A stretch of DNA of 64,000 nt from Frankiales bacterium. Lineage in GTDB: Bacteria > Actinomycetota > Actinomycetes > Mycobacteriales > Jatrophihabitantaceae. Shown one piece after another: positions 19,081 to 30,147 of the stretch. Position 1 is the first letter of the stretch, and the number at the start of each line of letters is the position of its first letter. A model generated the notes under the pieces. It saw nothing but the letters and a program-made list of their open reading frames with translations, was not told the DNA's origin and ran no database searches. The stretch is taken from positions 62,001 to 126,000 of the forward strand of contig JAOPUZ010000021.1 in assembly GCA_025966315.1 (NCBI GenBank). The letters are read 5' to 3'. The position numbers were made by a program, and so were the translations under genes.

Positions 19081-19659
19081 TCAATTCAGATCGACCCCGG
19101 AACGTTGCAGATCGGCCAAATCAGTGCCGGACTCGAACCAACGTTGCTGCAGCGCCTCGCTTCCGTGCACGCGGGCCCACGCCAATTCATTCTGTGTTGC
19201 CGGTAGCAACTGAAGAATCACGACCTCGCCATCAGCACCGACGTTGACCGGTCGCAGCGCACCGGCGGCGAGGACACCGCCCGTACACTGCGAACCCGGC
19301 ATGAGTGGCTCGCCGATGTCGACTCGATTCCCCACGGAATACACGATGCCCTCGACCGCGGGTGCCGCAGCCAGGATTGCGACTCGGCGCCACAGGTCGC
19401 TGATGCCCGAACGAACGGACATCAGCAATTCAGCCCGCGGACCTGATTCGGTTAGCAGCTCAGCCCCAGCGTCGGTCATGGGATGCCGCGACATACCCAA
19501 GCTGAGCAGATGATCCAGCGGGCCTTCGCGATAACGCAGAATCTCGATCGGCTCGACCCCGACAAAGGACACCGACGCCCGATCGGGGACGACCTCGAAG
19601 TGCTCACGGTAGGCAGCAGCCACAATCTCCAATACCGCGATCTCAGCTGCGCTCACCAC
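19081..19659 (-). CDS. Suppressor-of-fused (SUFU) domain protein
   Basis: This 192-residue protein resembles the bacterial SUFU-like domain: an early FVGVEPIEILRYREGPLDHLLSLGMSRHPM segment and a late VVILQLLPATQNELAWARVHGSEALQQRWFE segment are characteristic. It starts at GTG 19659, or the adjacent GTG 19656. In bacteria SUFU-domain proteins are often immunity proteins or are found beside secreted toxins. The next gene upstream is the WXG100 gene of a type VII-like locus, so a protective or accessory role is possible but not shown. No toxin gene is visible in the window. Confidence 0.75.
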   Translation of the reverse strand: MVSAAEIAVLEIVAAAYREHFEVVPDRASVSFVGVEPIEILRYREGPLDHLLSLGMSRHPMTDAGAELLTESGPRAELLMSVRSGISDLWRRVAILAAAPAVEGIVYSVGNRVDIGEPLMPGSQCTGGVLAAGALRPVNVGADGEVVILQLLPATQNELAWARVHGSEALQQRWFESGTDLADLQRSGVDLN

Positions 19660-19775: not shown

Positions 19776-20069
19776 TCAGCCTCGGAATGACGCCGCGATC
19801 TGCTGTTCAACGGAGGCATAGCTCGAGCCGGCCTGTGACAACAACCGACCGATGCCATCCAGCGACGTCGAAAGGCCTTCGGCACTCTTGGTGAACTGCT
19901 CGTACAACGCCGCGAACTGGGCCGAGGCGGTGCCGGACCAATCGGCGCCGAACAGCGGCGACAACTGTGTCTTGAGTGAGATGTGCTGGCCGCGCACGTC
20001 GGTCGCCGTCCGATTACAACTGCCGCCGAGCGACGTCAACTGCTGCGGCGTAACCCTGAGTCCGCTCAT
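19776..20069 (-). CDS. WXG100-family secreted protein (ESAT-6-like)
   Basis: The 97-residue protein starts at ATG 20069 with AGGAG eight bases upstream; an in-frame start at 20093 has no such site. It is a helical hairpin with the central W-x-G turn as WSG (44-46) and heptad-like hydrophobic spacing either side, the hallmark of type VII secretion substrates. Only one copy is present, so it may form a homodimer like firmicute EsxA. It is divergent from an EssC/EccC-like ATPase gene 178 bp away, its probable export motor. Confidence 0.88.
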   Translation of the reverse strand: MSGLRVTPQQLTSLGGSCNRTATDVRGQHISLKTQLSPLFGADWSGTASAQFAALYEQFTKSAEGLSTSLDGIGRLLSQAGSSYASVEQQIAASFRG

Positions 20070-20160
20070 GATTGGTACTCCTAACCCGGCCATTTGTGGG
20101 GCCGTAGATCGTTGATGACGGGACAGACGGTACGCACATTTTCACCGCCACAAACCGCCC

Positions 20161-20169
20161 TGTGGACAA
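20161..20169 (-). promoter_or_regulatory. DnaA-box-like site (TTGTCCACA on minus strand)
   Basis: The plus strand reads TGTGGACAA, the reverse complement of the actinobacterial DnaA box TTGTCCACA. It lies in the WXG100/EssC-like divergent gap, 27 bp from a second box in the opposite orientation. Function is inferred from sequence only. Confidence 0.5.
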
Positions 20170-20187
20170 CCTGGCTTCCTCCCCTAG

Positions 20188-20196
20188 TTATCCACA
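20188..20196 (+). promoter_or_regulatory. DnaA box (TTATCCACA)
   Basis: This is an exact match to the classical DnaA box, 52 bp upstream of the EssC-like start codon and inverted relative to the site at 20161. Two sites this close would be uncommon by chance, but an origin would need many more. A regulatory role is the simpler reading. Confidence 0.55.
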
Positions 20197-20247
20197 GATT
20201 GTGTAGTCGGTCCGCGCGCCCGTGACAGTTCCGCCAGACTAAGCAAC

Positions 20248-23200
20248 ATGAAAGTCGTCCTGACCATTCGTGAGGCGAGCGGTGCCGAGCATGACGTGGC
20301 CGTTACCGCAGCCGTCGGTACGCGGTTGGACGCCGTCAAATCCGAGATTGCCCGCGCGGTCGGATCGAGCCAGCTCGAGTCCCTGTTCGTCGGTGACGCG
20401 GTAGTACCGCCCGAGTCCGTCATCGGCGATCGCGTGTTGCGTTCTGGGATCACGCTCGGTGTGGATCAGCCCACCCCTACGTCGTTTTGCGCGGGGCAGG
20501 CTTTGCAGCTACGCGTCGTCGGCGGCCCCTCGGCCGGTGAGGTCCGCGATGTGCTGCACACCCGGCTTCGCATAGGTCGGTCCGTCGACGCCGATATCCG
20601 GTTGGCGGACCCCGATGTGTCCCGACTGCACGCGGAACTGCAGGTGGCGCCCGGTCAGCTTCGAATCCGAGACCTCGGATCGACCAACGGCACGACGGTC
20701 GCAGGGCTCCAGATAACCGCAGAACTCACTACGATCGATTTCGGCAGCCGCATCCAAGTCGGCGGTTCGACTCTCGCAGTTGTGCGGGGTGCCGAACCAC
20801 CCGCCTCGCTGACCCTTACGTCCGACGGTCACCTGGCCGTGAATCGGCCACCGGTACTGCGTGGCTGCCCCCCGGCCCAAGACGTTGAGTTTCCGGTGCT
20901 CGTCGAACCCGCACGGCCAGCGAAGGTGGACTGGCTCGCGGCCCTGCTGCCTGCGGTGCTTTCCGTCGGGCTCGCAGTCCTCATGCATAACCCGCAGTTC
21001 CTCGCGTTTGCCCTACTTTCACCGGTAACCATGTTGGCCGCCTTCGGAACCCAGACCCGAAACTGGCGCAAGGCCGTGCGTATCGCCAACCGAGAGTTCG
21101 CCGCGGAAGAGGACGTCGCCGAGCAGAATCTGCGCGCGTCGCTAGCGATCGAGGCGGACGGCCGCCGACAAGAGATGCCCGATCCCGCGGCGGTATTCCT
21201 CGCTGCGACGACACCTGATTCACGTCTCTGGGAGCGTCGTCTCGGTTCTGAAAGCTTCCTTGTCGTGAGCACCGGCACCGCCGACCTGCCGGCACGCACG
21301 ACCGTTCGCCGATCGAGCGGCGCACTACCCTCGGCGAGCGTGCCGGCGGTTCCGGCAACAGTGGGACTAACCGATGGCCCGTGTGGGATCGCCGGACCGC
21401 TAGCCGCCGCGCGGGGGACGGCGCGCTGGCTCGTTCAGCAGGTGCTGGTACTGCACTCCCCCGCGGACTGCACCGTGTGGCTTTTCACCGACGACGATGC
21501 CGATCATTGGCGATGGGCCCGCTGGCTGAACGACTCTGCGGTGCGGATCTTCCTCTGCGAGCAGACACGTCGGACGGCTATGGACGATCTCCTGTCCTTG
21601 ATGCAACAGCGCGAGCGCGCGTCCCTTCATGGCCAGACTTGGTCCATGGACTGGATCGTCGTTGTAATCGACCCAGCAACTCTGCTGCGTGGAACCACCG
21701 CTCTGAACCGGGTCATCCAGGACGGCAGCCGTTACGGAATAACGGCAATCTGTGTCTCTGAGGAACTGTGCGATTTGCCGTCGTCCTGCCGTAGTGTCGC
21801 GCAGATCGACCGTGGCACGCTTGCCACCTTGTCGTTGTCGACCTCGTTTTCGTCTGACGCGATCGAGGTTGCCGCGGATCAGGTTGGCATCCCATGGTGT
21901 GAGGAGGTCGCCCGAGGGCTAGCTCCGCTTCGTGACACCGCAACACAGCGAGCATGCGTCTTGCCGGATACCGTCAGCTTGGGTTCGCTGCTGTACGCAG
22001 AGCGCTCGATCGAACGAGGAATTGCCGAGGACTGGCGAGCGGGTCCACACACTCGGGTGCCTATTGGTGTCATGGCCAGCGGGCCGGTCGAACTCGACCT
22101 CGAGGTTGACGGCCCACATTTACTCATCGCGGGTAGCACCGGATCCGGCAAGTCTGAGTTGCTGAGAACGCTCGTCGCCGCCCTTGCCGCTCGAAACGCG
22201 CCTGAACATCTGTCGTTTGTGCTCATCGATTACAAGGGGGGCGCCGCGTTCTCGACCTGCGAGGAGCTTCCCCACACATTAGGTTTGGTCACTGACCTCG
22301 ACGAACACCTCACCAGACGGGCACTGCTGTCCCTGAACGCCGAGCTTCGTCGGCGTGAACGGCTCTTCGCGGATGCTGGAGTTGCCGAACTCGACACCTA
22401 TCGGCGAGCTGCTGAGGCCAGCGGCGCCGCCAAACTGCCACGTCTGCTGCTGGTGGTCGACGAGTTTGCCACCTTGGCCGAAGAGCTGCCCGACTTTCTT
22501 GCCGGGTTACTGGGCATTGCGCAACGAGGCCGGTCGCTCGGAATCCACTTGATTCTGGCCACGCAGCGTCCCACCGGGGTTGTCTCCCCCCAGATGAAGG
22601 CGAACCTGGCCCTGCGGATAGCGCTGCGAGTGACCGATCCGATGGACTCGGTGGACCTGCTCGGAACCGATTCAGCAGCCAGCCTGCCGAAGGATCGACC
22701 CGGTCGCGCGGTCGGCCGGTTCGCCAACGGTTTGCGGGAATTCCAGACGGCGCTGGTGAGCGTATCCGGCCCACGCTCGGAGCGCCCCAGCGTCACGCTG
22801 CTCGATTCGTGGCATCGGCCAGCGGACGTCGAGCTACCCACGGCCCACGTCGGCTCCGACCTCAGTCGGATTGTCGCCGCGGTCCAAGACCTCGCCACAA
22901 GGCACGACTTTCGTGGTCACAAACCCGTGAGGCCATGGCTTCCACCGTTGCCGCAACAATGGACGCCAAGCGAGTCGATGACGCCGGCGGCCAAATCGGT
23001 GAACGATCCGGAATCAGCCGACAACACCGCGACAATCGTGCTCGGTCTGGTGGACGATCCGGCCAGCCAGGCGCAGTACGAATTGCGCCACGAGTTACTG
23101 GTCGGTGGTGCGATCGGGATCATCGGCGGTCCGCGATCGGGACGGACGACAGCCATGCGAAGCTATCTGGGTCAGCTGACCGCTAAGCGCGATAGCGAGT

Positions 23201-24510
23201 CGTTGCACTGCTACATCATCGACTGCTCGGCCGGGGCATTTGATCAGGCCGCTGGATTGCCGCAGGTCGGCGCCGTCATCACCGCACGCGATCCAACGGC
23301 GATCGCGCGCCTGATCGCCCGATTGCAACAGTCGTTCGAGCGACGCCAAAAGGACATGGCCGATATCGGTGCCGCGGACCTTCGACAAGCGCGCGAGGCC
23401 GGCGTGCCGATGGCACCGATCCTGTTGATCATCGACAACTGGGACATGTTCGTCTCCGTCTGCGATGACTTCGACGCCGGGCGGACGATCGAAACCATGC
23501 GCACACTGCTTCGCGACGCTACGGCGGCTGGTATGACGATTCTGGCGGCCGGCGATCGTGGCATGCTCGGCGTTCGAACGGCCCCGCTGTTCGGTCGACG
23601 CTTCGTCCTGGAGTTACTAGACGCCAGCGACTACGCGATGGCTGGTATCCCCGCCAACGCGGTGCCTGCAAGTCCCGGGCCGGGCCGGGCGATTGCCACG
23701 CATCTTGGGCTCGAGGTGCAACTTCCTTTACTCGACGACGATCCCGAGGCTGCCACGCAATGGTCGATCTTGCTCCGCTCGGCTCAGCGAGCCGAGCCCG
23801 CACCTGGCCTAGGACCAATGCAGATCCGCCCACTGGCGCAGTTCGTGTCACCGTCCCAACTGACTGATCAGCTCCTCGACCAGCAAGTCGTCGCGCTAGG
23901 CCTAGGCGGCGACGACGGCGCGCCTGTTGTCATCCACGAACGTGACCTGACGCCGGGGTTCCTCATCGCCGGACCATCACGCAGCGGTCGCAGCGGAGCA
24001 CTGACGACGATCGCTTCGCAACTTCGCATCGATCGCCTCGGCGGTCTCGTCATCGCCAACGCTCGATCGCCGTTGCGGGCGTGGGGATCCCGGCACAGGC
24101 TGGCGGCCACGTGGTCGGACGACGACTGCGGCCCCGCGATCATCAGCCGCTTCAATGGCGACGTGCTCATAGTCGACGACGTCGACAAGCTTGGCGGGAG
24201 CCCACTGGAGGACGCTGTTCTGCAACTACTCGTCACCGGCCGGGCGCTGGTCGTCGCAGCCGGACGCTCCGAAGATCTACTGACCAGCTATCGCGGAGTC
24301 GGGGTCGAACTGCGCCGCAACCGGACCGGTTTGTTGCTCAATCCTGGCATGGCCGACGGTGACCTGCTCGGCGTCCGCACGGCGGCCGGAGCCACTAGCC
24401 GGCTGCACGGACGAGGGGTGTTGGTGCTTGATCGCCTGCGCGTCGATCATCCCAACGGCATGAGCGTGCAACTCTTGGCGCCGAGCGAGGAGCAGCCTCA
24501 GACGCACTGA
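20248..24510 (+). CDS. EssC/EccC-like type VII secretion ATPase with FHA domain
   Basis: The protein has 1420 residues. Residues 1-75 look like a ubiquitin-like beta-grasp domain. An FHA domain follows, with GRS (110-112), SRLH (125-128) and GSTNGT (144-149). Two membrane segments lie at about 229-245 and 250-267. Three FtsK/SpoIIIE-type ATPase modules follow. Module 1 has a canonical Walker A GSTGSGKS (629-636) and VVDEF (736-740). Modules 2 and 3 have GPRSGRTT (961-968) and GPSRSGRS (1242-1249), where the P-loop lysine is arginine. This is the motor of a WXG100 export system. The FHA-first layout resembles firmicute EssC more than mycobacterial EccC, which lacks FHA. No eccB, eccD, eccE or mycosin gene is in the window. 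Confidence 0.9.
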   Translation: MKVVLTIREASGAEHDVAVTAAVGTRLDAVKSEIARAVGSSQLESLFVGDAVVPPESVIGDRVLRSGITLGVDQPTPTSFCAGQALQLRVVGGPSAGEVRDVLHTRLRIGRSVDADIRLADPDVSRLHAELQVAPGQLRIRDLGSTNGTTVAGLQITAELTTIDFGSRIQVGGSTLAVVRGAEPPASLTLTSDGHLAVNRPPVLRGCPPAQDVEFPVLVEPARPAKVDWLAALLPAVLSVGLAVLMHNPQFLAFALLSPVTMLAAFGTQTRNWRKAVRIANREFAAEEDVAEQNLRASLAIEADGRRQEMPDPAAVFLAATTPDSRLWERRLGSESFLVVSTGTADLPARTTVRRSSGALPSASVPAVPATVGLTDGPCGIAGPLAAARGTARWLVQQVLVLHSPADCTVWLFTDDDADHWRWARWLNDSAVRIFLCEQTRRTAMDDLLSLMQQRERASLHGQTWSMDWIVVVIDPATLLRGTTALNRVIQDGSRYGITAICVSEELCDLPSSCRSVAQIDRGTLATLSLSTSFSSDAIEVAADQVGIPWCEEVARGLAPLRDTATQRACVLPDTVSLGSLLYAERSIERGIAEDWRAGPHTRVPIGVMASGPVELDLEVDGPHLLIAGSTGSGKSELLRTLVAALAARNAPEHLSFVLIDYKGGAAFSTCEELPHTLGLVTDLDEHLTRRALLSLNAELRRRERLFADAGVAELDTYRRAAEASGAAKLPRLLLVVDEFATLAEELPDFLAGLLGIAQRGRSLGIHLILATQRPTGVVSPQMKANLALRIALRVTDPMDSVDLLGTDSAASLPKDRPGRAVGRFANGLREFQTALVSVSGPRSERPSVTLLDSWHRPADVELPTAHVGSDLSRIVAAVQDLATRHDFRGHKPVRPWLPPLPQQWTPSESMTPAAKSVNDPESADNTATIVLGLVDDPASQAQYELRHELLVGGAIGIIGGPRSGRTTAMRSYLGQLTAKRDSESLHCYIIDCSAGAFDQAAGLPQVGAVITARDPTAIARLIARLQQSFERRQKDMADIGAADLRQAREAGVPMAPILLIIDNWDMFVSVCDDFDAGRTIETMRTLLRDATAAGMTILAAGDRGMLGVRTAPLFGRRFVLELLDASDYAMAGIPANAVPASPGPGRAIATHLGLEVQLPLLDDDPEAATQWSILLRSAQRAEPAPGLGPMQIRPLAQFVSPSQLTDQLLDQQVVALGLGGDDGAPVVIHERDLTPGFLIAGPSRSGRSGALTTIASQLRIDRLGGLVIANARSPLRAWGSRHRLAATWSDDDCGPAIISRFNGDVLIVDDVDKLGGSPLEDAVLQLLVTGRALVVAAGRSEDLLTSYRGVGVELRRNRTGLLLNPGMADGDLLGVRTAAGATSRLHGRGVLVLDRLRVDHPNGMSVQLLAPSEEQPQTH

Positions 24511-27669: not shown

Positions 27670-29007
27670 TCATCGCTTGACACGGCGGCGACCCCGCTCA
27701 GCCGGCATTCCCAAGATCGAGCCCGCAAGATCAGCCAGTGCGCCACGAAGCGGGCTGCTCGGTGCCGAAGCCATCAGGCTCCGTCCGGCGCTCGCTGCGG
27801 CATCCAGGCTAGATCGATCATAGGGAAGGAATGCGGCCGGTGTCCGTTCAGCGAAGCGCAGCAACGCTGCCTTCAGTTCGGCAGTCGAACTACGGCCGGC
27901 CGCCGCGGGTTGCACGCGATTGAGCACGACCCATACCGGAGTCTCGATATCAGTGTCGCCGAGCTCACCCAGACCGCGCACGAGGCGTTGCATTCCGACG
28001 GGGTCAGCCGATCCGACTGCGATTATCAGGTCCGCTTCAGTCAGGGCGGCGAGTGTGGCGCCGTTGCGACGCGGCGCGACCGTGTCGAAGCTGAGCTCCT
28101 CATCGGTTTCGAGGCAGAAGCCGACGTCCACGACGGTGATCGGGGCTAGTCCGCGAGCGAGTCGAAGAGTTTCGCCCAGTGCGGCCGGCCGGATCTCTGG
28201 CCATCGATCGGCGCGGGCGATCCCGGTAAGGACTCGCAACCCGGGTTCGAGCTGCCAGGCCAGGCTCGCCAGCACCGCGACGTCCAACTGGTGGTTGTGC
28301 GCATGGCGACAGGCTGCGGCCAGGCCAGGCGACTCGTCCAGCAATCCGAGCAGGCTCGACACGGCGCCGCCGTACACATCCGCATCGACGAGCAGTACGC
28401 CTTGACACCGACACACAAGTTCGTGCGCCAGCCCAACCGCCACAGTTGTCCGGCCGGGCGCCCCGGTCGGCCCCCACACAGCGATCACGGCGCCAGCCGC
28501 GCTGTCCAGTCCCAACTCTGGGGCGCGCAGCTCAACGTGACTCTCGTCCGGAAAGGCAGGGTCAGCTGTCACCGCGCCGGCGACGCGCCCCCGCGTCGTC
28601 GCCCACGGCTCGGAAAAGTCGTAACCAGCGCTGCCGGTGTCAGCCGTCCCACCACGAACCGCTACGCCGGCAACGGATGCGAATACTGCCGCCTGCGCGT
28701 GGGCGGGCACCACGTACTCGATCCCGAGGGATGCGAAGTGCGCACGTTCGTTCCGATCATCGACTTCCACGACGCCGACCGCTACGACGCCGCATACGCG
28801 CAAGCGTGCAACGACATCAGCGTCCAGGTCGACGACCGCGACTGAAATGAAGGCAACTTCACCGAGGCCGACCTCTGCTGCCGCAAGCAATTCGACGACG
28901 TCAACGCATCGCTTGCGTATCAGCAGCTGGTCCGACGGGGTTAGACCCGACAGCAGGCGCCCTTCCCACGAAGCTCCGGCGGCGGATACCAGAGCTGAGA
29001 CGGTCAC
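27670..29007 (-). CDS. CpaE-like MinD/ParA-family ATPase
   Basis: From GTG 29007 the protein has 445 residues, with a divergent N-terminal domain of about 175 residues followed by a MinD/ParA-type fold. The P-loop reads GPTGAPGRTT, with arginine where ParA-type proteins have the nucleotide-contacting lysine. LLVDADVYGG and ITVVDVGFCLE mark the later nucleotide-site strands. CpaE-like proteins localise pilus or secretion machinery in Tad systems. The start overlaps the stop of the SAF-domain gene by 4 nt (GTGA), so the two proteins are coupled. No Tad pilin, prepilin peptidase or CpaF gene is present here. The longer frame upstream to 29247 is antisense or overlap noise. Confidence 0.8.
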   Translation of the reverse strand: MTVSALVSAAGASWEGRLLSGLTPSDQLLIRKRCVDVVELLAAAEVGLGEVAFISVAVVDLDADVVARLRVCGVVAVGVVEVDDRNERAHFASLGIEYVVPAHAQAAVFASVAGVAVRGGTADTGSAGYDFSEPWATTRGRVAGAVTADPAFPDESHVELRAPELGLDSAAGAVIAVWGPTGAPGRTTVAVGLAHELVCRCQGVLLVDADVYGGAVSSLLGLLDESPGLAAACRHAHNHQLDVAVLASLAWQLEPGLRVLTGIARADRWPEIRPAALGETLRLARGLAPITVVDVGFCLETDEELSFDTVAPRRNGATLAALTEADLIIAVGSADPVGMQRLVRGLGELGDTDIETPVWVVLNRVQPAAAGRSSTAELKAALLRFAERTPAAFLPYDRSSLDAAASAGRSLMASAPSSPLRGALADLAGSILGMPAERGRRRVKR

Positions 29008-29699
29008 GACTGAACCGCTTGGCAGGCCCGTGGATCGAAATCGGCGTTGAGGCCGGGCTGGTCGTGGGACAGCACAGCGAAGCGCACGACGGGCGAGTCC
29101 AATGCCAGCGACATGAGCACCTCTCGGGCCTGCTTGTCGGAGACGAGGACCGAGATACTCGGGCCCGTCGCTGAGGCGAAAGCACCACTGGCGGCAGTGT
29201 GGACGGCTTGCACCGTGACGTCGCCGAGCACTACGCCACCGCGACACTGCTTGCTGTTGAGCCAGACTGCAACCCGTGCACCTCGTACCACTTGCGCAGA
29301 TGCCACTTCGCTCGAGGCGATCGTCAGCGAAACACCTCGAGTGGCGGGCCCGATCTCGTCACGCCCGACCAACTCCCCTGCCACCAATTGGGAACGTACT
29401 CGCAGCCCGGCAACGCTTGTGCTGGCTGGCAAGTAGCGGTCGCTCACGTCGCCGAGTTGAACGGCGACAACTCGCACGTCGTTCGCGTTGAGGACAGTGC
29501 CGACGGCGAGATCCCGATTAGCGATCAACATTCGGACGCGATGGTCCGCGGCCGAAACCAACCACGAACCGGCAAGGACACAACCCAGGACGAGAGCTAT
29601 GCCCGACAGCAGGCGCGGATCGAACCAACGAGGACGCTTCAGGCGTTGCGGTGAGGGCGACGGTGGCACTGCGAGGCCAGCGGCGGAGGGAAAGCTCAT
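29004..29699 (-). CDS. SAF-domain membrane protein (CpaB/RcpC-like)
   Basis: From ATG 29699 the product has 231 residues. A proline-rich cytoplasmic N-terminus is followed by one membrane helix (about 30-52, LLSGIALVLGCVLAGSWLV). An extracytoplasmic SAF domain follows, reading IANRDLAVGTVLNANDVRVVAVQL, and a C-terminal beta-rich part. SAF domains occur in CpaB/RcpC pilus proteins and flagellar FlgA, where they bind glycans or guide assembly. The arrangement with a CpaE-like partner recalls Tad loci, but the pilus genes are absent. The start of the longer frame at 29927 would bury the divergent promoter region and was not used. Confidence 0.82.
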   Translation of the reverse strand: MSFPSAAGLAVPPSPSPQRLKRPRWFDPRLLSGIALVLGCVLAGSWLVSAADHRVRMLIANRDLAVGTVLNANDVRVVAVQLGDVSDRYLPASTSVAGLRVRSQLVAGELVGRDEIGPATRGVSLTIASSEVASAQVVRGARVAVWLNSKQCRGGVVLGDVTVQAVHTAASGAFASATGPSISVLVSDKQAREVLMSLALDSPVVRFAVLSHDQPGLNADFDPRACQAVQS

Positions 29700-29751
29700 G
29701 GATCTGATTTTTCCCGATGGCGAGCACTGCGTCTGACCGCAGCGGCAAAGC

Positions 29752-29760
29752 TGTGGATAA
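29752..29760 (-). promoter_or_regulatory. DnaA box (TTATCCACA on minus strand) upstream of the SAF gene
   Basis: The plus strand reads TGTGGATAA, the exact reverse complement of TTATCCACA. It lies 53 bp upstream of the SAF-gene start in its divergent gap with the HTH gene. It repeats the placement seen upstream of the EssC-like gene. Confidence 0.5.
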
Positions 29761-29874
29761 CTTCTGCGCCTGTGCACGACGAAGTGCGAGACTGGCCTGA
29801 CTGATGCTGCGACGGGGCGATACCCGAAGCGACTACCACGTAGCACCAATACGATCGGCGAGAGAAGGATGTGG

Positions 29875-30147
29875 ATGACCGAGACGCGATTTCTCACCCT
29901 GGCTGACGTCGCCGAGGTATTGAACATCTCCGGCTCACAGACCTACGCCCTGGTTCGCTCAGGCGAACTCAGAGGTATCAAGATCGGCGGCCGCGGCCAA
30001 TGGCGCGTCGAGCGCGAACAACTCGAATCGTTTATCCATCGGATGTACGACGAGACGAGCAGCTTCGTTGCGGCACACCCGCTGATCGATGACGACTCGG
30101 TAACGCGCACAACAAACGAGACTAGGTCGATCGCTGGATTGCGCTGA
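29875..30147 (+). CDS. Excisionase-type (MerR-like) helix-turn-helix DNA-binding protein
   Basis: From ATG 29875, with GAGAAGG six bases upstream, the protein has 90 residues; ATG 29869 would add two. The N-terminal two-thirds are an excisionase/BldC-like winged helix: LTLADVAEVLNISGSQTYALVRSGELRGIKIGG then QWRVEREQLESFI. The rest is a short acidic tail. Such single-domain proteins bind direct repeats as cooperative filaments in the BldC case. It is divergent from the SAF gene and lies within the envelope-gene group, so it is a good candidate for its local regulator. Nothing suggests a phage origin. Its last 26 bp overlap the end of the convergent gene. Confidence 0.88.
   Translation: MTETRFLTLADVAEVLNISGSQTYALVRSGELRGIKIGGRGQWRVEREQLESFIHRMYDETSSFVAAHPLIDDDSVTRTTNETRSIAGLR

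What the first reader, a model, noticed from the sequence alone, without database searches (positions are those of the whole stretch)
19776..24510. Minimal WXG100 plus EssC-like export locus with a firmicute-type ATPase layout
A single WXG100 gene is divergent from a 1420-residue ATPase that carries an N-terminal ubiquitin-like part and an FHA domain before two membrane helices and three FtsK modules. Mycobacterial EccC lacks FHA; EssC of firmicutes has it. No eccB, eccD, eccE or mycosin gene lies in the 64 kb. This could be a stripped-down type VII system, distinct from ESX.
Basis: partly seen in the sequence, partly recalled or inferred. Interest (0 to 1): 0.68.

Follow-up and report, generated by a model that had tools for sequence, protein, structure and literature searches.

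The report
Two-gene secretion locus with DnaA boxes
This is a conserved two-gene protein-export locus of actinobacteria (a membrane motor plus its small partner protein) that is neither the tuberculosis-type nor the Staphylococcus-type system, and its shared promoter carries a pair of binding sites for the DNA-replication starter DnaA found nowhere else in this genome.

Summary
A WXG100 protein (start corrected to 20069; 97 aa, WSG, C-terminal YASVE) diverges from a 1420-aa ATPase built as ubiquitin-like domain, FHA, membrane helices and three FtsK modules. The genome also has a complete ESX cluster on contig C67 (EccB, EccC, EccD, mycosin) and a second FHA-type ATPase on C5 beside a Tad operon, so this is not the only type VII system. 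It is not a piece of ESX: in a 73-sequence tree the ATPase lies in an actinobacterial clade (100/97) apart from EccC (100/100) and Firmicutes EssC (100/100). That clade includes Bifidobacteriaceae and kinase-linked Micrococcales loci resembling T7SSd (described 2024). New here: (1) the ubiquitin-like TsxB that T7SSd was reported to lack appears fused to the ATPase N-terminus; (2) the divergent promoter holds an inverted pair of perfect DnaA boxes, unique in the 4.56-Mb genome, at the same place in 16 family genomes, spaced 16-18 or 27-28 bp; (3) two complete relatives lost the ATPase but keep WXG100, its neighbour and the operator (one mismatch). 'Firmicute-type' is wrong; 'minimal and distinct from ESX' is fair. 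New variant of a known kind.

The parts
19776..20069 (-). WXG100 protein (97 aa), WSG turn and C-terminal YASVE export-type motif
   Evidence: Pfam PF06013 2.7e-18; start from alignment of 37 homologues and Shine-Dalgarno; orthologue in all 24 family genomes
20161..20169 (-). DnaA box TTGTCCACA (distal half of inverted pair)
   Evidence: matches the S. coelicolor/M. tuberculosis high-affinity box in PMC4285127 Table 1
20188..20196 (+). DnaA box TTATCCACA (proximal half, start at -60 from the ATPase ATG)
   Evidence: matches the E. coli/B. subtilis box in PMC4285127 Table 1
20248..24510 (+). TsdC/EssC-like ATPase, 1420 aa
20248..20469 (+). ubiquitin-like domain (residues 1-74)
   Evidence: AlphaFold pLDDT 92.4, Foldseek SUMO/ISG15/ubiquitin and EccD5 Ubl 7npt_D8
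20500..20787 (+). FHA domain (residues 85-180) with intact GR, SRLH, STNGT
20926..21057 (+). hydrophobic stretch, probably two membrane helices (residues about 227-270)
   Evidence: read from the sequence; no membrane predictor run
22060..22797 (+). motor module D1 (residues 605-850), Walker A GSTGSGKSE, Walker B VVDEF
   Evidence: 57-68% identical in family relatives while other domains are 20-50%
23020..23817 (+). module D2 (residues about 925-1190), P-loop Lys replaced by Arg (GPRSGRT)
23860..24447 (+). module D3 (residues about 1205-1400), P-loop Lys replaced by Arg (PSRSGRS)
19081..19659 (-). SUFU-domain protein downstream of WXG100, conserved in the family; possible accessory
   Evidence: PF05076 1.2e-20; synteny

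Best explanation
This is a vertically inherited, compact type VII secretion locus of an actinobacterial ATPase clade that also holds T7SSd-like systems. Mechanism, mostly inferred from family knowledge: the ATPase sits in the membrane as a multimer; its only canonical motor module is D1, while D2 and D3 (Arg in place of the P-loop Lys) act as regulatory or substrate-docking modules. The WXG100 protein folds as a helical-hairpin dimer and is recognised through its C-terminal YxxxE tail, then exported. The ubiquitin-like part that is a separate EsaB/TsxB or an EccD domain in other systems is fused to the ATPase N-terminus, and the intact FHA domain probably docks a threonine-phosphorylated partner, so activity would answer to a Ser/Thr kinase encoded elsewhere. 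The two genes share a divergent promoter with an inverted pair of DnaA boxes on one helix face, so transcription is probably set by DnaA. Shown: gene layout, domains, motifs, phylogeny, the conserved operator. Inferred: export, kinase control, DnaA binding.
For: Tree of 73 ATPases: FHA-type clade 100/97, EccC 100/100, Firmicutes 100/100. D1 P-loop Lys in 93 of 93 scored family members; Arg in D2 for 68 and in D3 for 74. D1 57-68% identical within the family while other domains are 20-50%. WXG100 within 2 kb of the ATPase in 68 of 94 clade loci. Ubiquitin-like fold and FHA fold. Conserved synteny. Inverted box pair once in the 4.56-Mb genome; of 18 such pairs in 24 family genomes, 16 lie here; spacing only 16-18 or 27-28, proximal box about 60 bases before the ATPase start, 0 of 2000 shuffles; 2 of 186 control genes have a box.
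Against: In two complete genomes (G017, G022) the ATPase is missing while WXG100, SUFU and most of the operator remain, so WXG100 has a role or an export route without it. No kinase or TsdI-like gene was found in the window (one seed each). No secretion or DnaA-binding data exist. Orthologous promoters are not independent samples.
Confidence: 0.62

Rival explanations
1. The WXG100-SUFU pair is the real conserved unit and is exported by the ESX (EccC) system; the FHA-type ATPase is a fast-evolving neighbour that modulates it or is being lost.
For: ATPase absent in two complete genomes with WXG100, SUFU and YxxxE kept; WXG100 53-82% identical in the family versus ATPase 35-45%; complete ESX in the own genome.
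Against: ATPase kept in nearly all other family genomes, D1 strongly conserved; shared operator placed at a fixed distance from the ATPase start; Geodermatophilaceae keep WXG100 plus ATPase without SUFU.
Confidence: 0.2
2. It is an ordinary T7SSd whose other components (kinase, TsdH, TsdI) are encoded elsewhere in the genome.
For: Same ATPase clade as Bifidobacteriaceae and kinase-linked Micrococcales loci; phosphothreonine site intact.
Against: None of those genes is conserved at this locus in the family, and the window lineage lies outside the Micrococcales/Bifidobacteriaceae subclade.
Confidence: 0.15
3. The inverted box pair is an operator for another regulator whose site resembles a DnaA box.
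For: No binding data; only two boxes, in a promoter rather than an origin.
Against: Both 9-mers are exact high-affinity DnaA boxes, including the actinobacterial TTGTCCACA form (PMC4285127).
Confidence: 0.35
4. The SAF and ParA/TadZ-like genes 3-5 kb downstream are parts of this secretion system.
For: SAF and ParA genes also sit by FHA-type ATPases in C5 and Streptosporangiaceae loci.
Against: The window-type ParA gene is kept in many genomes without the FHA-type ATPase, for example G017, G022, G024, G026, G031, G034.
Confidence: 0.05

Closest known systems
T7SSd of Actinomycetota (Olsenella, Bifidobacterium; PMC11217815)
   Same: Related ATPase clade, single WXG100, FHA domain with intact phosphothreonine site, no separate ubiquitin-like gene seen
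   Different: No kinase, TsdH or TsdI found at the locus; ubiquitin-like domain seen fused to the ATPase; own subclade with a secA-linked location
T7SSb (EssC/YukBA of Bacillota)
   Same: FHA before the membrane part, three FtsK modules, single WXG100
   Different: Separate clade; FHA intact rather than degenerate; N-terminal domain is ubiquitin-like; no EsaA or EssB in the genome
T7SSa / ESX (EccC, EccB, EccD, mycosin)
   Same: Membrane FtsK motor with WXG100 partner and YxxxE motif
   Different: Separate clade; no EccB, EccD or mycosin at the locus; a real ESX cluster lies on another contig
Solo-WXG mobile T7SS with a three-module ATPase noted in PMC3482391 (footnote; proteobacteria and others)
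   Same: WXG plus ATPase only
   Different: There only the middle module is said to be active; here D1 has the only canonical P-loop

Membership tests
Type VII secretion, general | EccC/EssC-type membrane FtsK ATPase | tested here: met
Type VII secretion, general | WXG100 protein with WXG turn and C-terminal YxxxD/E | tested here: met
Type VII secretion, general | ATPase-dependent export of WXG100 | not testable with these tools
   needs a culture-filtrate assay
T7SSa / ESX | ATPase inside EccC clade | tested here: not met
T7SSa / ESX | EccB, EccD and mycosin at the locus | tested here: not met
   EccB found once, on C67; EccD and mycosin beside it there; none among the genes scanned around the window ATPase
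T7SSb / Ess-Yuk | EssB/YukC and EsaA in the genome | tested here: not met
T7SSb / Ess-Yuk | ATPase inside Firmicutes EssC clade | tested here: not met
T7SSd | ATPase in the TsdC clade | tested here: inconclusive
   Groups with Bifidobacteriaceae and Micrococcales ATPases, 100/97; the reference Olsenella uli TsdC was not available
T7SSd | FHA with phosphothreonine-binding residues | tested here: met
T7SSd | Ser/Thr kinase TsdD at the locus | tested here: not met
T7SSd | TsdI Ig-like envelope protein at the locus | tested here: inconclusive
   one seed only, from a plasmid locus of Rothia
T7SSd | TsdH single-helix protein | not tested
   no model on hand
DnaA-bound promoter | high-affinity DnaA boxes in conserved spacing | tested here: met
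DnaA-bound promoter | DnaA binding and transcriptional effect | not testable with these tools
   needs gel shift, footprint or ChIP-seq

The most novel reading that the evidence does not exclude
A replication-coupled type VII system: DnaA binds an inverted box pair on one helix face and controls the WXG100 and ATPase promoters together, so export follows the replication cycle. The ATPase carries a built-in ubiquitin-like subunit and an FHA phospho-sensor, which makes a near-complete exporter out of two genes.
Probability: 0.33. Interest if true: 0.78.

Novelty: new variant of a known kind. Interest (0 to 1): 0.57.

Why it matters
A 2024 survey called it surprising that T7SSd has no ubiquitin-like protein; the fused N-terminal domain offers a direct answer that can be tested. 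The clade is found in about one in ten sampled actinobacterial genomes and is annotated only as 'FtsK/SpoIIIE domain-containing protein'. A DnaA-box operator unique in the genome would tie a secretion system to chromosome replication, and the relatives that lost the ATPase are natural knock-outs for asking what WXG100 does alone.

Tried and rejected
SAF and ParA/TadZ-like genes as partners: rejected for this lineage, since ParA is kept in many genomes without the ATPase. Duplicated ESX parts: rejected by the tree. Firmicute-derived EssC: rejected by the tree. Mobile element: nothing supports it, because the locus is syntenic with secA, DUF6459, DUF6912 and patatin genes across the order. Consensus sigma-70 promoters: none found; terminator-like sites at chance level. 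A phylum search of 400 genomes failed and was rerun with 198. Papers: no report linking DnaA boxes to type VII loci was found in the held library.

Full report
Observation. The two genes are real and as described. Pfam and NCBIfam place the long ORF among EssC/EccC motors without reaching any curated EssC/EccC cut-off (EssC 462 bits, EccCa 327), and the small ORF is a clear WXG100 (2.7e-18). Homologue alignment and a TTAGGAG Shine-Dalgarno move the WXG100 start to 20069.

Anatomy of the ATPase. AlphaFold with 56 relatives (pLDDT 90) and on residues 1-79 alone (pLDDT 92) gives a ubiquitin-like domain, then an FHA sandwich. Foldseek returns SUMO, ISG15 and ubiquitin, plus the EccD5 ubiquitin-like domain of ESX-5 (7npt_D8, 7np7_D2), for the first, and GarA, OdhI and FhaA FHA domains for the second. 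The FHA phosphothreonine residues (GR, SRxH, NG) are intact here, and in 52 of 91 family members overall; they are lost in the Streptomyces, Streptosporangiaceae and own-C5 lineages. D1 has a canonical P-loop in all 93 members scored; Lys is replaced by Arg in D2 (68 of 95 rows) and D3 (74 of 95). D1 is the constrained part (57-68% identity to relatives within the family), the remainder 20-50%.

Relatives elsewhere in the genome. EccB, EccD, EccC and a mycosin-like protease form an ESX cluster on C67. A second FHA-type ATPase on C5 has two WXG100 genes and a T7SS_signal protein, next to a Tad operon with ParA, SAF, a T2SSE ATPase and a weak T2SSF match. EssB and EsaA are absent.

Phylogeny. 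On the membrane-to-D1 region (648 columns, LG+C20, 73 rows) FHA-type actinobacterial ATPases are one side of a branch with 100/97, EccC 100/100, Firmicutes 100/100. The tree is unrooted. Bifidobacteriaceae and Micrococcales members, several with a kinase and a separate FHA protein beside the ATPase, form a subclade that matches the description of T7SSd in PMC11217815. I could not place the reference Olsenella uli TsdC, so the T7SSd label is inferred. One Bifidobacteriaceae member with its N-terminus present (L164) also shows the ubiquitin-like stretch; another (L156) does not align there. That paper reports no ubiquitin-like gene in T7SSd and calls this surprising; fusion to the ATPase would explain it. 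In an even draw of Actinomycetota, 19 of 198 genomes carry a family ATPase.

Locus conservation. SUFU, WXG100, ATPase, DUF6912, patatin, wax-ester synthase, ParA, SAF and an excisionase-like gene, next to DUF6459 and secA, are syntenic through the family and in part through other families including Geodermatophilaceae. ParA is kept without the ATPase in many genomes, so it is neighbourhood, not machinery. WXG100 is present in all 24 family genomes. In two complete genomes (G017, G022) the ATPase is cleanly absent between WXG100 and DUF6912, while WXG100 with its WXG and YxxxE motifs, and SUFU, are kept. SUFU proteins are known as immunity proteins of polymorphic toxins (PMC3482391), but no toxin gene was recognised beside this one.

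Operator. The 178-bp divergent intergenic region holds TTGTCCACA (minus strand) and TTATCCACA (plus strand), the high-affinity DnaA boxes of S. coelicolor/M. tuberculosis and of E. coli/B. subtilis (PMC4285127). Only three perfect TTRTCCACA sites occur in 64 kb, against 0.27 expected. The inverted pair occurs once in 4.56 Mb. Of 18 pairs in 24 family genomes, 16 lie in this intergenic region; 16 other genomes of the order gave one pair. Start-to-start spacing is 16-18 or 27-28, about one helical turn apart, with the proximal box 59-63 bases before the ATPase start in the loci where that start is well placed; 0 of 2000 shuffled regions gave such a pair. Both spacing classes occur within single genera (g1 and g9), so the spacer changed by about a turn more than once. 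One locus (L075) shows no pair. The two genomes without the ATPase keep the pair with one mismatch. Upstream of other genes in these loci 2 of 186 have a box; seven of 64 FHA-type loci outside the family also have boxes within 200 bp, 9 against 0.15 expected. Promoters of orthologues are related by descent, so these numbers describe conservation, not independent events.

Mechanism and limits. Export by D1-driven translocation with YxxxE recognition is inferred from EccC/EssC biology. FHA docking of a phosphorylated partner and DnaA control are hypotheses with strong sequence support and no experiment. The locus may depend on components encoded elsewhere.

Noticed in passing
L007 1-14500 and L201 8500-12100 (own contig C5): Second FHA-type T7SS ATPase, with a degenerate FHA, two WXG100 genes and a T7SS_signal protein, next to a Tad pilus operon; similar SAF and ParA adjacency in Streptosporangiaceae loci. 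PMC11217815 noted Tad adjacency for T7SSg and T7SSh of Bacillota.
   Followed up: partly
L070 4863-15952 and L071 3381-14176: T7SSd-like cluster in two genomes of the window's family: WXG100, FHA-type ATPase, Ser/Thr kinase (1.6e-57), a separate FHA-like protein and a divergent PASTA protein of about 930 aa.
   Followed up: partly
L194 7994-9612 and L195 9821-11507: ATPase cleanly missing while WXG100, SUFU and flanks are intact: natural knock-outs.
   Followed up: yes
L182 18087-28530: A very long hypothetical protein gene (record 139419-155369, about 5300 codons) three genes downstream of an FHA-type ATPase on a Streptomyces plasmid.
   Followed up: no
window 27670-29927: SAF-domain plus TadZ/ParA-like gene pair near secA, kept across many genomes of the order with or without the FHA-type ATPase; function unknown.
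   Followed up: partly
L008 9647-10298 (own contig C56): A tandem pair of WXG100-like genes with no secretion ATPase recognised nearby.
   Followed up: no
L090, L100, L133 upstream of the ATPase: Two or three DnaA boxes in direct orientation upstream of FHA-type ATPases of Streptomycetaceae and Streptosporangiaceae.
   Followed up: partly
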